Shown in pieces: positions 15,101 to 22,475 of a stretch of 64,000 bases of DNA. A program made the translations under genes and the position numbers. A model generated the notes under the pieces. That model saw nothing but the letters and a program-made list of their open reading frames with translations. It was not told where the DNA came from and did not search any database. The stretch's first letter is position 1; the number at the start of each line of letters is the position of its first letter. Source of the DNA: Hypomesus transpacificus. Its lineage: Eukaryota > Chordata > Actinopteri > Osmeriformes > Osmeridae. Location: the NCBI RefSeq assembly GCF_021917145.1, contig NW_025813779.1, forward strand, positions 1-64,000, in the 5' to 3' direction.

Positions 15101-18100
15101 ACTGACTTAAGATACATCACATGACCTATGTGGTGACTCTCTCTCTGTCCCTGTGTCTCTCTCTCTCTCTTTCTGGACATCACATGACCTCTGTGATGAC
15201 TCTCTTTCTCTGTCTGTCCCTGTGTCTCTCTCTCTCTCTGTCTGGACATCACATGACCTATGTGGTGACTCTCTCTGTCCCTGTGTCTCTCTCTCTCTCT
15301 CTGTCTCTCTGTTTGTCCCTGTGTCAGGTGTTCCAGGAGATGCAGCTAGCAGTTGGCACCTCCAGATCAATCCTCATGTCCCCTAACTCTCACTACGCTT
15401 TACAAAGCAACAAGTCAGTGTTTGACGTGTCATCTACTCTTTGAGGGTCATATGTATGGTATGTTTGTGTTGGGATGCTCATATTTTGTTTGTGTGCTCC
15501 AGAGACACCATCTGCCCTGTACGCTACGCCCTGTGTCAGTGTGTGAAAGGGGAGGGGCTTGTTACCGTGGACGACCAAGGTGTTCTCAGGGCGGGGCCGG
15601 ACACAGGAGCGGCCCTGTTGGAGGTTGTTGCTATGGAGACGTGTGGCCTCAACCAGACCATGTTCATCAGTGTCCGGGTTAGTGTGGGGTGTGAGAGTGC
15701 GTGTGTGTGTGTGTGTGCATGCATGTGTGTGTCTGTGTGGTCTCTATATATGCATTCCTGTATGTGTGTGTGTAGTCACGTTTGTGTGTGTTGCCTGTTG
15801 GTGATGAGGCGTGTGTGTTTGTGTGTGTTGCAGGTGTCTCCAGTGTGGTTCATACGTCTCTTAACAGAATCCTCCCTGTATGGTGTGGGCGGGGCCAGTG
15901 GTGTGGGTGGGGCCAGCGGTGTGGGCGGGGCCAGCGTTGTGGGCGGGGCCAGCTTTCCTGCCTTCCCCCTGGGGTGGAGCTTCACTGTCAGGGCCCAGTG
16001 CTACGACCACCTGGGACAGCTGTTCCACGCACACAACACACACACACACCTCCTCACCAGCAGGTAACACACACACACACCTCCTCACCAGCAGGTAACA
16101 CACTCACAGACACACCTCCTCACCAGCAGGTAACACACTCACAGACACACCTACAGCATGTTGGTAGTGTAAGCTGTATTCTCAGGTGTCCTGTTCCTCC
16201 TCAGGGACGACCTGCTCCAGGTGACTCCAGGCTGTGACAGTCACTCGTTTGTGGTTCAGACGGTGTCGGAGGGTGTGACAGTGTTGGGGGTGAGGGGGGA
16301 CTCCACCAACCCCTCCCTCAGTGACTACACCCCCCTGCCCGTGCTCCTGACCATTTCTGCCCCCCCGCACACCCTCACACCTGGAGACACACTCTGCTTC
16401 AACACCGCCCTCACAGGAAAGCACGGTAGCACACACACACATGTACATACACAGGTACACACACATGTACACACACACGCACAGCACTAAGCACTCTGTT
16501 CCCCTCCCTCTCTACCTCCCTCCCCCCCTCCCTCTCTACCTCCCTCCCCCCCTCTCTCTCTACCTCCCTCCCTCCCTCTCGTCCAGGCCAGCCTGGTCAG
16601 TGGTACGTGTCGTCTGATCAGGTGCTGCAGATAGACCCAGGAACAGGGGCTGCGCTGGCAAAGCATTCTGGAACAGTGGTTGTGTTCTACAAAGTGGAGG
16701 GAGGACAGAAGGCCTTAAGAGAGGTAGGGAGGGAGGGAGGGAGGGAGGGAGGTAGGGAGGGAGGGAGGGAGGGAGGGAGGGATACTGTGTCCAGGTCATG
16801 ATGGTGTTTGGTGTTTGACCAGGTGACAGTGGAGTCCCCTGCCGTCCCCTCCCTCTCTCCTCCTGAGGATCGCTTCCTGACCAACTGGCCAGAGGCTCCA
16901 GAGTACAGGGTCTCCGTGGACCTGCACACCAGCCCAGCCAACACTGGTCAGACACACCCCCAACACAGCAGCTTATCTACAGCTGTTGATGATGACCTAC
17001 GTTTTACAGGGAATATGTCCACTTTTACTCCCTCCCTCTCCCTCTCGCTCTCTCTCTCTCTCTCTCTCCCTCCCTCTCTCTCCCTCTCTCTCCCTCTCGC
17101 TCTCCCTCTCTCTCCCTCTCTCCCTCTTGCTCTCCCTCTCTCTCCCTCTCTCCCTCCCTCTCTCTCCCTCTCTCTCCCTCTGTCTCCCTCTCCCTCCCTC
17201 TCTCTCTCTCCCTCCCTCTCCCTCTCTCTCTCCCTCTCTCCCTCCCTCTCTCTCTCTCCCTCTCTCTCCCTCTCTCTCTCTCCCTCTTGCTCTCTCTCTC
17301 TGTCTCTCTCTCGCTCTCTCTCTCAGCCCAGTGCACTCTGTCCCAGAGAGAGGCCATTGAGAAGAGCCTTCATCCAGAGGAGGAGTTACAGTGTGTTCTG
17401 CACTTCATCGCCCCCTACCTCCTGCTCAGCTCATTACAGGCTGTATTCAACACCTTGCCACGCTACGACCACGACACTGGTGAAGATACAACTCTACTGA
17501 CGCTTCCCCCCCCTCCCCCCCTGTATGAACAAGTCACTGATGAATGAAGATGCACTCTCTCCCCTTCCCCTCCCTCTTCTCCCCCCCTCTCTCTCCCTCT
17601 CTCCCCTCCTTCCCTCCTGTCCAGGTGCCTACAGCTGCAGTGTCTCTGTGTCCCCCCAGACCCCCCCTGTCCTCCTCCTCCTCTCCTCCCTCTCCTTCTC
17701 CATCTCTCTCTCCTCCTCCCTGCGGAGCCAGCCTCCTCTCCCTCTCTCCAGACGCCCGGTGCAGCTGCCCTACCTGCCGGCGTTCCACTGCCCCGTCACG
17801 ACCCTCTCCCTGTCCAGCCTGCAGCCTGTACAGCTGGCTGTCCTGGGCTCCAAGGACATGCTGTCTGCTCTCAGGGTGGGCACACACACACACACCCTCG
17901 CACACACACCCTCGCACACACTCACTCACTCACACACCCCTGTATCCTCATACCCTGCCCTAGGCTTTGGGACAATAGAAGCTTGATCTTATTTATAACT
18001 AAAAGACAAAAGCTAAACAGTAATGAAAATGTGTTTCTGTGTGTGTGTTCAGTTTCATAGTGAAAGTCCCTTCTTACTGCTGTCTGAGCCTAGCCAATCA

Positions 18101-18619
18101 GAACATGACTCCGTCCTCCTTGTGCTGTCCATCGATCCCTCCACTTCCTGGATGGAGGGGCAGGGTCTGCCCCGCCCCGTCAACGTCACCGTCTACAACC
18201 GTCTGACTCCACAGACACACGTCGTCACGGTGACCTTTGTGACGGACAACCGTGTGGAGAAAGGTGAGCAGGGCCCAGAGCAGTGATGGAACACAGGTGA
18301 GCCCAGCAGCAGACATCTGATGTCTGTGTGTGTGTGTGTCACCAGGAGGAACTGATTTGATCCGTCTGGAGTCAGGTCCCCTTCTCCAGCTCGTGGATTT
18401 CCAGCTTATCTTGACGTTTGCCGTGTTTGCAGTTCTTGTCACCACTGCTGCCTTGTTCATAGGTACAGATTCACCCCCCAGTACCAGGACCTCTCATCAC
18501 ATGACTAGTCAACTAGAACTCTTATGTAGGGTATTAAGTTACAATCTGTGTGATCTTTCTAATCAGGGACAGATGGCTGCCCAAGTCCTGAGGCCTGCTC
18601 AACTGAGGTGTGATTAAAC

Positions 18620-18650
<31 letters not shown>

Positions 18651-19034
18651 GTGTCTGTACTCTGTGTTAGTGTACAACACCATCCTGTCACGCCTACAGA
18701 CGGGCCCTGTGGTCTACATGCCCAGCAGCCCTCCGGCCACCTCAGGTACGTCTTAGCCAACACCTCGTCTCCTCCTCACTGATAGCTGAGTGGTTAGGGA
18801 ATCAGGCTAGTAATCAGAAGGTTGCTGGTTCAATTTCGGACCATGCCAAATGACTGTGTCCTTGGGCAAGGCACTTCACCCTACTTGCCTCGGGGGGAAA
18901 TGTCCCTGTTCACTGTAAGTGGCTCTGGATAAGAGCATCTGCTAAATGACCACCTGTGATGTGTCAGTAGTGGCTCCCTGCAGGCAGACGGTGTGCTTCT
19001 CTCCCTGGATCAGGATGTCATCAGCAGGCGCTGA
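1900..19034 (+). CDS. nup210l: nuclear pore membrane glycoprotein 210-like (gp210/POM210 family), multi-exon
   Basis: This is a gp210-family nucleoporin, a single-pass glycoprotein of the nuclear pore membrane whose bulk lies in the perinuclear lumen as a string of Ig-like (BIG2-type) domains. The 38 resolved exons encode about 1859 residues, against about 1887 for human NUP210. It begins with a hydrophobic signal peptide (residues 1-25, [17 protein letters not shown]...). Family landmarks include [62 protein letters not shown] and [10 protein letters not shown]. One transmembrane segment lies near the C terminus (exon 37, [19 protein letters not shown]), followed by a short cytoplasmic tail. 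All exon phases agree except exon 3, which carries one extra base in a poly-C run. I prefer nup210l over nup210 because rps27 and rab13 follow in the human NUP210L order; sequence alone would not separate the paralogues. The last exon is uncertain, so the right edge is approximate. Confidence 0.9.
3425..3770. repeat. 26-bp minisatellite in nup210l intron 5
   Basis: About 13 copies of a 26-bp unit beginning TGTGAATGTCCACACGCTC, with G/A and T/C variants. Because 26 is not a multiple of three, all frames open up and produce artefactual histidine/tryptophan-rich minus-strand frames that are not genes. Confidence 0.95.
4684..4744. repeat. (GT)n at the 3' end of nup210l intron 8
   Basis: About 30 uninterrupted GT dinucleotides run directly into the acceptor of exon 9 (GTGCAG at 4742-4747). 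Confidence 0.95.
4963..5053. repeat. (CT)n polypyrimidine tract before nup210l exon 10
   Basis: An almost pure CT tract with rare G ends at the exon 10 acceptor (CTCAG, 5051-5055). Confidence 0.95.
5197..5282. repeat. (CA)n just inside the nup210l exon 10 donor
   Basis: CA repeat with ATGCAC interruptions begins at the donor itself (GAG|GTACACACAC). Confidence 0.9.
6282..6523. repeat. 30-bp minisatellite in nup210l intron 13
   Basis: About eight copies of a 29-31 bp unit containing TATGAAGCTTCACAGCTGGG, differing mainly in T and C run length after GGGTGC. Confidence 0.95.
6735..7312. repeat. 12-bp GTGCGTGTGTAT array in nup210l intron 13
   Basis: Nearly 600 bp of strictly alternating purine-pyrimidine sequence, mostly 12-bp units GTGCGTGTGTAT with occasional CA, TTGC or AGGT variants. 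Since the unit is a multiple of three and lacks stops, it yields long artefactual Cys/Val open frames on + and His/Thr frames on -; these are not genes. Confidence 0.95.
7418..13145 (+). CDS. nup210l: nup210l coding exons 14-24
   Basis: Exons: 7418-7563, 8628-8846, 9184-9366, 10640-10787, 11453-11523, 11654-11758, 11879-11980, 12055-12183, 12285-12412, 12586-12781, 12966-13145. All phases are consistent. The block encodes the central luminal region, with family motifs such as DNFSS (exon 17), [10 protein letters not shown] (exon 19), [12 protein letters not shown] (exon 20) and [14 protein letters not shown] (exon 23). Exon 14 could instead start 8 bases later at a second AG; I chose the upstream one because it gives the better family match. 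The exon 17 donor (G|GTCAGC) is weaker than the others. Confidence 0.85.
7655..8150. repeat. 55-bp minisatellite in nup210l intron 14
   Basis: Nine copies of a 55-bp unit starting GGGGAGACAGTGAGGTAGTA, with only a few alternating point variants (CAGGACAG/CAGCACAG, CTAACAT/CTGACAT). The pattern of variants suggests recent turnover. Confidence 0.95.
8230..8625. repeat. CT-rich tract (CTCTCTCTCCAT units) before nup210l exon 15
   Basis: About 400 bases of pyrimidine with regularly spaced CCATCT interruptions run into the exon 15 acceptor at 8626-8627. Open frames rich in Ser/Leu (+) or Arg/Glu (-) are by-products. Confidence 0.95.
9670..9905. repeat. CA repeat with periodic TAGT in nup210l intron 16
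   Basis: CACACACATAGTCACACACA-type units of variable length. Confidence 0.9.
10195..10636. repeat. CT-rich minisatellite (CCTCTCTCCTTCCCC units) before nup210l exon 17
   Basis: About 440 bases of nearly pure pyrimidine in 15-30 bp units, ending at the exon 17 acceptor (CCCCAG, 10634-10639). Minus-strand Glu/Arg/Gly open frames here are artefacts. Confidence 0.95.
10855..11441. repeat. 25-bp minisatellite in nup210l intron 17
   Basis: A 25-bp unit, TTCAGTAGTGAAAGGTTTGG plus GGTGA, is repeated more than 20 times. The left third holds variants (GTGTGGGGTGT, AGTCGTG); the right two thirds are almost identical copies. The array stops about ten bases before the exon 18 acceptor. Confidence 0.95.
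12782..12880. repeat. (CA)n directly after the nup210l exon 23 donor
   Basis: CA repeats interrupted by GATA and GGTA begin at the donor (CGGCAG|GTACACACAC). Confidence 0.9.
13345..13474 (+). repeat. dispersed teleost repeat, copy 1
   Basis: This stretch in nup210l intron 24 has the reverse complement of a close relative at about 54064-54187 (rusc1 intron). Shared blocks include GTCAGAGCC, CTTGAGTGAAAAAG, TTCAACTTTTACCAGAGTC and AGTATCT. It resembles a short element found widely in fish genomes; I cannot assign a family. Confidence 0.75.
13475..13570 (+). mobile_element. possible hAT-like element remnant
   Basis: GCAGAGGTCGCCAACCTGTC followed by GATCGCGATCGAC resembles the terminal repeat of non-autonomous hAT elements (CAG-GGTCGCCAACC). 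No matching right end or target duplication was found, so this is at most a fragment. Confidence 0.35.
13799..19034 (+). CDS. nup210l: nup210l coding exons 25-38 and uncertain terminal exon
   Basis: Exons: 13799-13879, 14019-14141, 14933-15079, 15328-15413, 15503-15677, 15834-16063, 16205-16425, 16587-16723, 16823-16946, 17327-17479, 17625-17875, 18053-18263, 18346-18462 (transmembrane), 18671-18745. Phases all join. Exon 30 contains four in-frame GVGGAS repeats. After exon 38 the frame needs a phase-1 acceptor. Three candidates lie just beyond a SINE, beginning at 18968, 18984 and 18988, with stops at about 19075, 19128 and 19034; I cannot choose between them. An AATAAA at 19213 fits any of these as the mRNA end. 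Confidence 0.82.
14127..14830. repeat. minisatellite of splice-donor units after nup210l exon 26
   Basis: 15-bp and shorter units, GACACACACAGGTGA and GACAGACACAGGAGA, begin inside the last codons of exon 26 and continue for 690 bp. The authentic junction ACACACAG|GTGAGA at 14141/14142 is itself the repeat unit, so about 20 identical donor-like sites follow it. Confidence 0.95.
15886..15954 (+). repeat. nup210l: coding 18-bp repeat in nup210l exon 30 (GVGGAS x4)
   Basis: Four tandem 18-bp copies (GGTGTGGGCGGGGCCAGC and variants) keep the frame and encode [24 protein letters not shown]. Human gp210 has no Gly-rich run at the aligned position as far as I recall. Confidence 0.9.
16028..16160. 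repeat. triplicated exon 30 end plus donor
   Basis: The segment CACACCTCCTCACCAGCAG|GTAACACAC occurs three times at about 35-bp spacing (junctions near 16063, 16095 and 16130), so the exon 30 donor has two downstream duplicates. Confidence 0.9.
16724..16782. repeat. (GGGA)n after the nup210l exon 32 donor
   Basis: GGGAGGGAGGGA tetranucleotide run starts in the donor (GAG|GTAGGGAGGG). G runs just inside 5' splice sites can act as intronic splicing enhancers. Confidence 0.9.
17030..17325. repeat. CT/CCCTCT tract before nup210l exon 34
   Basis: About 300 bases of pyrimidine with sparse G end at the exon 34 acceptor (TCTCAG, 17321-17326). Confidence 0.95.
18777..18952 (+). mobile_element. tRNA-derived SINE in the last nup210l intron
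   Basis: RNA polymerase III internal promoter boxes are visible: A box TAGCTGAGTGG at about 18783 and B box GGTTCAATTTC near 18828. Then comes a core (TGTCCTTGGGCAAGGCACTT, 18858 on) and the tail GGATAAGAGCATCTGCTAAA that many fish SINEs share. It ends within 20-40 bases of the candidate acceptors of the final nup210l exon. Confidence 0.85.
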
Positions 19035-19442: not shown

Positions 19443-19652
19443 TAAGAGAGAAGGACAGGTGGAGGAGAGCTGCAGTGTCGTCTCACATGGCTAGGGATAT
19501 TTGTGTTCACACACACTCCCTTTCCCTTCTTCCTTCAGTTTCCAGAACATCATTTCAGCCCATTTTCCTCTTAATCGTCACTTGGCAGAGTCACTTGAAA
19601 CCAATCGTCCAATCCTGTCTCTCCTCCCCCCGGTGGGGTTCATCAGTCTGGA

Positions 19653-21552
19653 TTAGTGTTGTTTTCTCCTGAATGAACACCCTGTTGGGATAAGAGGAGG
19701 AGGTGGGTCTGTAGCATAGGATCAGCTCCAACTCAAGTATTCAATTTATGTGCGACCAGATCAAACAGTGTACAGAGTGTTGTATGAGGAGAAAGACTGG
19801 ATTAGATCAGGGCCAGACTTCTTGTGGCTTATTGAATGAGAAACAGGCCAAGTCAGGGTTAACAAGGTTTTAAATCTACTAAGAGAACTACAGGTATACA
19901 AGACTAGTACATCATTGCCACTACAGCAATTTGTCATCACCAATCTGCCTATGCCAAAAGTAGGCCTCAAAGGACCCAAGTCTGTTGTTGCCTGTAGCAA
20001 CCCCGGTGAGGAGCCGCGTTACCATGACACCACTGGGAATGCTGGGTAAAACATGAACCATAAGAAGCTCAGTAGCAGAGGGGAACCTGGGGGTCCTTAA
20101 GGAGCCCCAGTAGCAGAGGGGAACCTGGGGGTCCTTAAGGAGCCCCAGTAGCAGAGGGGAACCTGGGGGTCCAGCCTGCAACCAGTTACAGATCACAAGG
20201 ATCTGCTCATTGCTGTTCTTGTAGTTTGTCTTGTCAAAAAGAACCACTGAACCATCCCTTTCTAAGACAACTAGAAGGTTACTGTATGCCTTAGTTGACA
20301 CCTTATTCATTAAGAGAGAAATGAACAGGCAACACATAAAGGCAAGAACTTGTCAAGTTCAGATAGGGAACTGTTGAAAACGTACACGGTGTGGTGTGTG
20401 TGATGGTGTGTATGTGATGGTGTGTGTGTGTGTGATGGTGTGTGTGTGATATGGTGTGTGTGTGATGGTGTGTGTGTGTGATGGGGTGTGTGTGTAAGGG
20501 TGAGGAGCGTGAAGGAGGCCGGTACCTTCTGTGAGTCGTGCCTTCCCTCCGGTAGGCTGGCAGAGCACCGTGGAGCAGCCCACACACAGCACCACTGTCT
20601 GGGCATGGCTGAACACCGTGGTGATCTTATAGCATCCTGTACAAACACACAATAAAGTTAGGACGCGCACACTTACAGGAGGCATTGAGCTACAATAATT
20701 AAGTAATATGAGTAGAATCATTCTATTCAGATGTTGAAATCCCCACTCAATGTGTTCTACTCACAATTTAAAAGAATTCATGTGATTTCAAAGTTAGTGT
20801 TCTTACAGTTGGCCTTGTCAAAAGGAATCACTATTAACACCTTTCAAAAGCCAACTAGAAGGTTACTGTATGCCTTAGTTGACACCTCATTCATTAAGAG
20901 ATAAATGAACGGGCAACACATAAAGGCAAAATCTAAACTACATACAGCCCTACACACGTCCTTGTTTAGACATAATAGGGACGTTGGTCTGGTAGATAGG
21001 GGATCAATATTGGAGCCCTAACTGATTTAGCAGGCAAGACCATGTAAAAGTTCCCACAGTCCAGAGAAACTTACCGGGACATTTTACATCCATAAAATAT
21101 GAGTTGGGACACTGTACAAGGCGCTTCTTCTTGTGACTTCTCTTCTCCTCTTCGGTGGAAGGGTGCAACAAATCCTTAGCAAGCTGCAAAAGACAGTTGA
21201 TTCTGTGTAGTAAGGCACGTAATATAATTGATAACATTTCCCACATTCGATTGAAATGTATCATTCTAAAGGGTAGACAATCGAGGTGTTATATATTCTT
21301 TCGGGAGTTTTCCCCCCTCGCTTTTCCACAGCCACGCTTTGTTTTGCATGTGGAGTAGGCCGCCATTATATGCTCACCACGCGCTTTGCACATTTTAAGA
21401 TGTATGTCCAGATTTAGCAAACCAATCAAGACAAAAGTGGGTCCCGCTTTAGACAATACATTATCCCATCGAAATACAAGTTCGTATTCCCCTCAAAGCG
21501 TTTCCCATGCTAACGTATTATTTCTATATGACGTGTGCGTACTTACAGGCAT
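19653..21552 (-). CDS. rps27: 40S ribosomal protein S27 (eS27)
   Basis: This small-subunit ribosomal protein is encoded in four exons on the minus strand: 21547-21552 (M-P only), 21075-21183, 20526-20636 and 19653-19681. They total 255 nt, exactly 84 residues plus stop, the usual length of eS27. The C4 zinc finger is complete: CPGC (Cys37, Cys40) and CVGC (Cys56, Cys59). The protein ends FRRKQH as in other vertebrates. Position 27 is Cys (VQCPNS), where I recall Ser in human. All junctions follow GT-AG with consistent phases. It is head-to-head with rab13 and convergent with nup210l, the human arrangement. Introns 2 and 3 each contain a snoRNA-like sequence. Confidence 0.97.
20071..20176. repeat. 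38-bp tandem repeat in rps27 intron 3
   Basis: Nearly three copies of a 38-bp unit starting AGTAGCAGAGGGGAACCTGG. Confidence 0.95.
20211..20346 (-). ncRNA. candidate H/ACA box snoRNA A, rps27 intron 3
   Basis: Read in the host sense, this ~136-nt stretch folds as two hairpins. Hairpin 1 has an outer stem TGCCTT/AAGGCA, an inner GTTG/CAAC and an apical TTCATT/AATGAA. A hinge with box H ACAGTA (ANANNA; 20280-20285) follows. Hairpin 2 has TTCT/AGAA, AGTT/AACT and GTCTT/AAGAC. It ends with ACA (20214-20216) three bases from the proposed 3' end. Host-sense placement inside a ribosomal protein gene intron is typical for this class. I cannot name the family or target uridine. See copy B. Confidence 0.72.
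20392..20497. repeat. GT-rich microsatellite (GTGTGATG units) in rps27 intron 3
   Basis: Irregular GTGTGTGATGGTGTGTG repeat on the plus strand; on the gene's own strand this is CA-rich and lies just downstream of the exon 3 donor. Confidence 0.9.
20795..20931 (-). ncRNA. candidate H/ACA box snoRNA B, rps27 intron 2
   Basis: A paralogue of snoRNA A with the same order of elements: TGCCTT/AAGGCA, GTTG/CAAC, TTCATT/AATGAA, box H ACAGTA (20864-20869), hairpin 2, and ACA at 20798-20800. The spacing from box H to ACA is 63 nt in both copies. In hairpin 2 the stem reads AGTTGGC/GCCAACT where copy A has AGTTGTC paired with GACAAACT. The U-A to G-C change is compensatory. Hairpin 1 is nearly identical between copies while the hairpin 2 loop has diverged, so the two could guide different sites from the 3' pocket. 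Confidence 0.7.
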
Positions 21553-21576
21553 CTTAGCAACTTTGTAGCCGTAGCC

Positions 21577-21582
21577 GAAAAG
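21577..21582 (-). promoter_or_regulatory. rps27: candidate 5' TOP / transcription start of rps27
   Basis: Thirty bases before the ATG the minus strand reads CTTTTCGG. A C followed by pyrimidines is the terminal oligopyrimidine start expected of ribosomal protein mRNAs and links translation to mTOR signalling. The start site is inferred. Confidence 0.55.
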
Positions 21583-22475
21583 AGTGATAAACCGGAAATA
21601 CTTTTCTGATGAATGGGGCTAACATGCAGGGGCCGGAAGTAGATGTCGAAGTAACACGCTGAATAGTGAAGCAGTAGTTAATAAAGACACAGAATGTAAA
21701 TGAAGATTCATATATGACCAGACCAGAACATTTTATATTCTTAAAAATGTTTTGCCAGTTTAATTTATTGTCTAATGAATAAAATATTGGGGAAGGCCTG
21801 TTTGTAATTTGAAGTTATTGAGTGAAGTTAGCTGAAGACTCCAGACCAGAGTTGTGCTAAACAAATTGTATACAGCTAGGCTAACTCGATCCATGTTTGC
21901 CTTCAAAAAAACTTTTTCATATCTCCTTTTTGCGGTGGAGTTTTTTTAAATTATAGTTGAGCGCCATCTGCTGTTCAAAAGGGGCATTAGCTGACAGAAA
22001 TCACTGGTCTGATGGGCACGCTCTCTCCCGGATGAACACTCCCTCACTCCCTCTCTACGTATGCCATTCTCCTACGGGAACTTGGTCGAGAGAAAGTTTA
22101 GGGCGAAAAAAATGTAATCCTGTCTAGTGTGGACAGTGAAATGGATTTATGACCATCAGAAAACAACTCGGACATTTGGTTAAAACTAAGGATTCACTAG
22201 GGCTACGTCATTTGGTTGTTGTGGAGTTGAAAAGTTTAATTAAACTTTTAAAAAAAAGAAGCATTTGGGGGATCGGAATTTACCGGTGACAGTTTCAAGG
22301 GAGAAAAACGAAAACAAGAGGTTCTAATGCAAAACCGTGACAAATCAGAGTTGGATCTGACCTGACTGTGGAATTTACCGCTTTAAATGAGACCAGCATA
22401 ATTCATAAAGCAATTTTTCATTAGAATTTCTATTTTTACACTGTTTTACACGGTTTTCACATTGAGTAATACGTT
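21583..22475. promoter_or_regulatory. shared head-to-head promoter region of rps27 and rab13
   Basis: About 890 bases separate the inferred rps27 start and the rab13 ATG. ETS-type GGAA sites lie close to rps27 (ACCGGAAATA near 21591 and GCCGGAAGTA near 21631), as is common in ribosomal protein promoters. The right half presumably contains the rab13 5' UTR; its start was not located. No other gene is visible. Confidence 0.5.

What the first reader, a model, noticed from the sequence alone, without database searches (positions are those of the whole stretch)
20211..20931. Twin H/ACA snoRNAs in consecutive introns of rps27
Two ~136-nt segments, one in each of rps27 introns 2 and 3 and both on the host strand, share a two-hairpin layout with box H ACAGTA and a terminal ACA at the same 63-nt spacing. 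The surrounding intron sequence is not similar, so the shared part has discrete ends matching a snoRNA. Hairpin 2 carries a compensatory pair change (GTC/GAC against GGC/GCC) and a diverged loop. I know of no named snoRNA for rps27 and cannot tell whether this family is described. One copy probably duplicated from the other and may have acquired a new 3' guide.
Basis: partly seen in the sequence, partly recalled or inferred. Interest (0 to 1): 0.75.

Follow-up and report, generated by a model that had tools for sequence, protein, structure and literature searches.

The report
Two SNORA13 snoRNA copies in rps27
Two neighbouring introns of a ribosomal protein gene each carry a copy of SNORA13, a known small RNA that directs a chemical change near where the ribosome holds its tRNA, so this looks like an ordinary duplicated gene pair whose one fresh point is where it sits.

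Summary
Introns 2 and 3 of a four-exon rps27 gene (minus strand) each hold one H/ACA snoRNA of about 135 nt. The copies match at 118/138 positions (E 2e-36), share box H ACAGUA, ACA and a 63-nt spacing, and have unrelated flanks. The family is not unnamed: both exceed the Rfam gathering score of RF00396, SNORA13/ACA13 (72.9 and 64.9 bits against 53). A new 3' guide is not supported: hairpin 2 shows no open pocket in either copy. Human SNORA13 lies in the lncRNA EPB41L4A-AS1. In the papers searched I found no text placing it in rps27. Verdict: a known snoRNA, duplicated within its host gene. There are no expression data and no other species were examined.

The parts
20795..20929 (-). SNORA13 copy B, in rps27 intron 2
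   Evidence: Rfam RF00396 72.9 bits at 20795-20928, gathering 53; fold z -5.18
20211..20345 (-). SNORA13 copy A, in rps27 intron 3
   Evidence: Rfam RF00396 64.9 bits at 20217-20344 (the ACA that Rfam aligned lies 5' of the one that aligns with copy B); fold z -1.96
20864..20869 (-). box H ACAGUA of copy B
   Evidence: nt 61-66 of the copy
20280..20285 (-). box H ACAGUA of copy A
   Evidence: nt 61-66 of the copy
20798..20800 (-). ACA box of copy B
   Evidence: nt 130-132 of the copy
20214..20216 (-). ACA box of copy A
   Evidence: nt 130-132 of the copy
20915..20920 (-). 5' half of the guide pocket, hairpin 1, copy B (UGUGUU)
20879..20883 (-). 3' half of the guide pocket, hairpin 1, copy B (GUCAA)
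   Evidence: pairs 5 nt, 14 nt before box H
20331..20336 (-). 5' half of the guide pocket, hairpin 1, copy A (UGUGUU)
20295..20299 (-). 3' half of the guide pocket, hairpin 1, copy A (GUCAA)
19653..21552 (-). rps27 host gene, coding span, four coding exons
   Evidence: Pfam PF01667 E 1.4e-30

Best explanation
Both segments are SNORA13 (ACA13) genes that arose by duplication within rps27. Each is cut from its spliced intron and assembled into an H/ACA snoRNP. The 5' hairpin pocket pairs with 18S rRNA helix 31 and places the uridine equivalent to human U1248 for pseudouridylation, the first step toward m1acp3-pseudouridine next to the P site. The 3' hairpin serves structure and protein binding, not guiding. 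Shown: family score, boxes, pocket, host introns. Inferred: transcription, processing, and the modification itself in this animal.
For: Rfam gathering-level hits for both copies, the only two in the 64-kb window. Pocket of 6+5 nt with an adjoining upper stem of 4 (A) or 3 (B) bp and 14 nt to box H; shuffles with a pocket of 11 or more pairs and upper stem of 3 or more: 36 of 3000 (A), 45 of 3000 (B); with a box 13-16 nt downstream as well: 2 of 3000 and 8 of 3000. Published: human SNORA13, called a homologue of yeast snR35, guides 18S position 1248 (PMC12975130, passages); the chicken ACA13 counterpart is listed for 18S-1206, 5' hairpin, 5+6 nt (PMC2653536, passages). Compensatory pair in hairpin 1. 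RF00396 search of the genome: the same two places only (44 of 43,860 first-look candidates scored).
Against: No RNA data. Copy A folds only modestly better than its shuffles, and neither pair retention (408 of 2000 random as good) nor folding energy (106 of 500 as good) of A exceeds random mutation of B.
Confidence: 0.92

Rival explanations
1. Copy B is the working SNORA13 and copy A is a copy on the way to becoming a pseudogene.
For: Copy A scores lower in Rfam (64.9 against 72.9), folds worse (z -1.96 against -5.18), most differences lie in hairpin 2 and the tail, where several break copy B's pairs, and A keeps B's structure no better than random mutants.
Against: Guide pocket, box H, ACA and 63-nt spacing are unchanged in A; A still exceeds the gathering score; hairpin 1 carries a compensatory pair. 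Both copies match the Rfam consensus less well in the 3' hairpin than in the 5' one, so divergence there may be usual for the family.
Confidence: 0.15
2. One copy has gained a second, different function through its diverged 3' hairpin (a new guide or protein contact).
For: The upper part of hairpin 2 differs between the copies.
Against: No open pocket at the required distance from ACA in either copy; positions there are mostly paired. No screen of rRNA or snRNA targets was run, so this is not excluded.
Confidence: 0.05
3. The copies are mobile snoRNA retroposons scattered over the genome rather than a duplicate within one gene.
For: Discrete ends, unrelated flanks.
Against: Two places in the genome search (limited candidate scoring), both in one gene on the same strand.
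Confidence: 0.04

Closest known systems
SNORA13 / ACA13 (Rfam RF00396)
   Same: Length, two-hairpin H/ACA layout, 5' hairpin sequence, guide pocket fitting the published target site
   Different: Two copies, in rps27 introns; the human gene is in the first intron of EPB41L4A-AS1 (PMC12975130), the chicken counterpart in EST BU236609 (PMC2653536)
yeast snR35
   Same: Named as the homologue of SNORA13 (PMC12975130)
   Different: Sequence and gene arrangement not compared here
Intragenic (cis-) snoRNA duplications in vertebrates
   Same: Paralogues in adjacent introns of one host gene; proposed as perhaps the major route of snoRNA expansion in chicken (PMC2653536 passages)
   Different: SNORA13 in rps27 is not named in the passages seen

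Membership tests
SNORA13 (RF00396) | Covariance-model score above the curated gathering cut-off | tested here: met
   72.9 and 64.9 bits against 53
SNORA13 (RF00396) | 5' pocket complementary to 18S rRNA around the position equivalent to human U1248 | tested here: met
Box H/ACA snoRNA | Two hairpins, box H (ANANNA) in the hinge, ACA three nt from the 3' end | tested here: met
   Folds and box positions; the true 3' end was not measured, so the three-nt distance is assumed
Box H/ACA snoRNA | Stable RNA bound by dyskerin, NHP2, NOP10, GAR1 | not testable with these tools
   No expression or binding data
Box H/ACA snoRNA | Intronic, host-strand location (usual in vertebrates) | tested here: met
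   rps27 introns 2 and 3, minus strand

The most novel reading that the evidence does not exclude
rps27 is an older or alternative host of SNORA13, and two working copies in one ribosomal-protein gene couple the dose of the m1acp3-pseudouridine guide (and of any RPL23-related role, as reported for human SNORA13) directly to ribosomal protein output, unlike the lncRNA-hosted human gene.
Probability: 0.2. Interest if true: 0.4.

Novelty: new member of a known kind. Interest (0 to 1): 0.2.

Why it matters
SNORA13 guides the first step of a hypermodified base next to the P site that is said to be often lost in human cancers, and it has a reported non-canonical role through RPL23 (both as told in passages of PMC12975130; RPL23 also in PMC12205218). 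A ribosomal-protein host with two copies would be a natural comparison with the lncRNA-hosted human gene, where host and snoRNA effects must be told apart. Otherwise it is a modest annotation result.

Tried and rejected
New 3' guide: unsupported, hairpin 2 is mostly paired at the pocket position in both copies; no target screen was run. I took these for chance matches of 16 fixed bases, going by the record titles, and read none of the sequences. The own-genome DNA searches with copy B and with copy A, and the own 18S search, did not complete, so a third copy missed and the animal's own 18S remain unchecked. An 18S pattern in viral contigs found 0.

Papers: SNORA13 alone 41 papers, 30 listed; SNORA13 with rps27 2 (passages of both seen: one speaks of RPS27A, the other lists both genes apart in an expression table); ACA13 with zebrafish 1 (listing only); teleost, snoRNA, rps27, intron 1 (listing only); three of four terms on snoRNA, EPB41L4A-AS1, host gene and chicken 218, 15 listed; two of four terms on snR35, SNORA13, 18S and U1248 47, 15 listed; SNORA13 with zebrafish 4 (passages of three seen; PMC8458545 not opened); a broader set 26, 10 listed (passages of one, PMC3412847). 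Passages were also seen in PMC10234308 and PMC13201660 (it calls SNORA13's step a 2'-O-methylation, which disagrees with PMC12975130's pseudouridylation). No passage seen places SNORA13 in rps27. Cheng 2024 and Babaian 2020 were not seen (Babaian not held). Two exon stretches of the plus-strand neighbour gave no Pfam match.

Full report
The finding concerns two similar segments in consecutive introns of a gene on the minus strand. I rebuilt the gene from the sequence: coding exons at 21547-21552, 21075-21183, 20526-20636 and 19653-19681. The joined product matches ribosomal protein S27e in Pfam, E 1.4e-30. Copy B (20795-20929) is in intron 2 and copy A (20211-20345) in intron 3, both on the host strand.

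The likeness is real and bounded. Aligning intron 3 with intron 2 (each within a few bases of its ends) gives one strong match, 118 of 138 identities with 2 gaps, E 2e-36; nothing else is better than E 0.4. Copy B folds far better than its shuffles (z -5.18, 0 of 200 as good); copy A modestly (z -1.96, 7 of 200).

The identity comes from Rfam: both segments exceed the gathering score of RF00396, SNORA13, and these are the only two gathering-level hits in the window. A low-threshold scan of 19600-21650 gave four further matches, all below their gathering scores and with E of 0.3 or worse, against 3.1e-12 and 1.9e-10 for the two copies. A search of the 437-Mb genome with RF00396 found these two places and no other, though only 44 of 43,860 first-look candidates were scored.

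The mechanism follows from the pocket. Dinucleotide shuffles give a pocket of 11 or more pairs with an upper stem of 3 or more in 36 of 3000 (A) and 45 of 3000 (B), and with a box 13-16 nt downstream in 2 and 8 of 3000. One search also found an equally long pairing in B (6+5) and a 6+4 one in A whose 3' half starts at nt 75, but these have no upper stem and that half lies beyond box H. Published work agrees: human SNORA13 guides 18S position 1248, first step of m1acp3-pseudouridine (PMC12975130, passages); the chicken ACA13 counterpart is listed for 18S-1206 through the 5' hairpin with 5+6 nt (PMC2653536, passages).

Structure under selection is only partly shown. In hairpin 1 the three differences are one loop change and one double change, U-A against C-G; three random substitutions gave a double-sided compensatory change in 1.4% of trials. 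Over the whole molecule 39 of B's 46 pairs are kept in A against a random mean of 36.9 (408 of 2000 as good), and 106 of 500 equally mutated versions of B fold as well as A does. So the case rests on family score, boxes and pocket more than on covariation.

The suggested new 3' guide finds no support. In both copies the bases where a 3' pocket would lie are mostly paired, broken by single unpaired bases; the Rfam consensus structure has a 10-pair lower stem with one unpaired base there. I did not screen rRNA and snRNA for targets, so a guide that opens this stem is not excluded.

What may be unreported is the host. Human SNORA13 is in the first intron of EPB41L4A-AS1 (PMC12975130); the chicken counterpart is in an EST-defined gene (PMC2653536). 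Eight paper searches and the passages seen did not place SNORA13 in rps27. But supplementary tables and Ensembl or Rfam species lists were not available here and several listings were capped, so this is weak evidence of absence. Duplication within a host gene is proposed as perhaps the major route of snoRNA expansion in chicken (PMC2653536). I therefore file the pair as new members of a known family with low interest.

Noticed in passing
window 19847-19920, minus strand: Sub-threshold SNORD36 match (25.7 bits, gathering 30; E 0.31 in the 2-kb scan, 0.032 in the 211-base scan) in rps27 intron 3, with a C-box-like AUGAUGU and a D box CUGA. Possibly a diverged C/D snoRNA in the same gene, possibly chance.
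   Followed up: partly
window 20070-20172: Perfect tandem repeat of a 38-nt unit, 2.7 copies, in rps27 intron 3 just downstream (host sense) of copy A.
   Followed up: no
window 20388-20495: Degenerate TG-rich tandem repeat (plus-strand sense), 16-nt unit, 6.8 copies, just upstream (host sense) of copy A.
   Followed up: no
window 17300-18745, plus strand: Apparent exons of a convergent neighbour gene; by eye and from recall it may be a nup210-like gene, the neighbour of RPS27 in mammals, but two exon stretches gave no Pfam match.
   Followed up: partly
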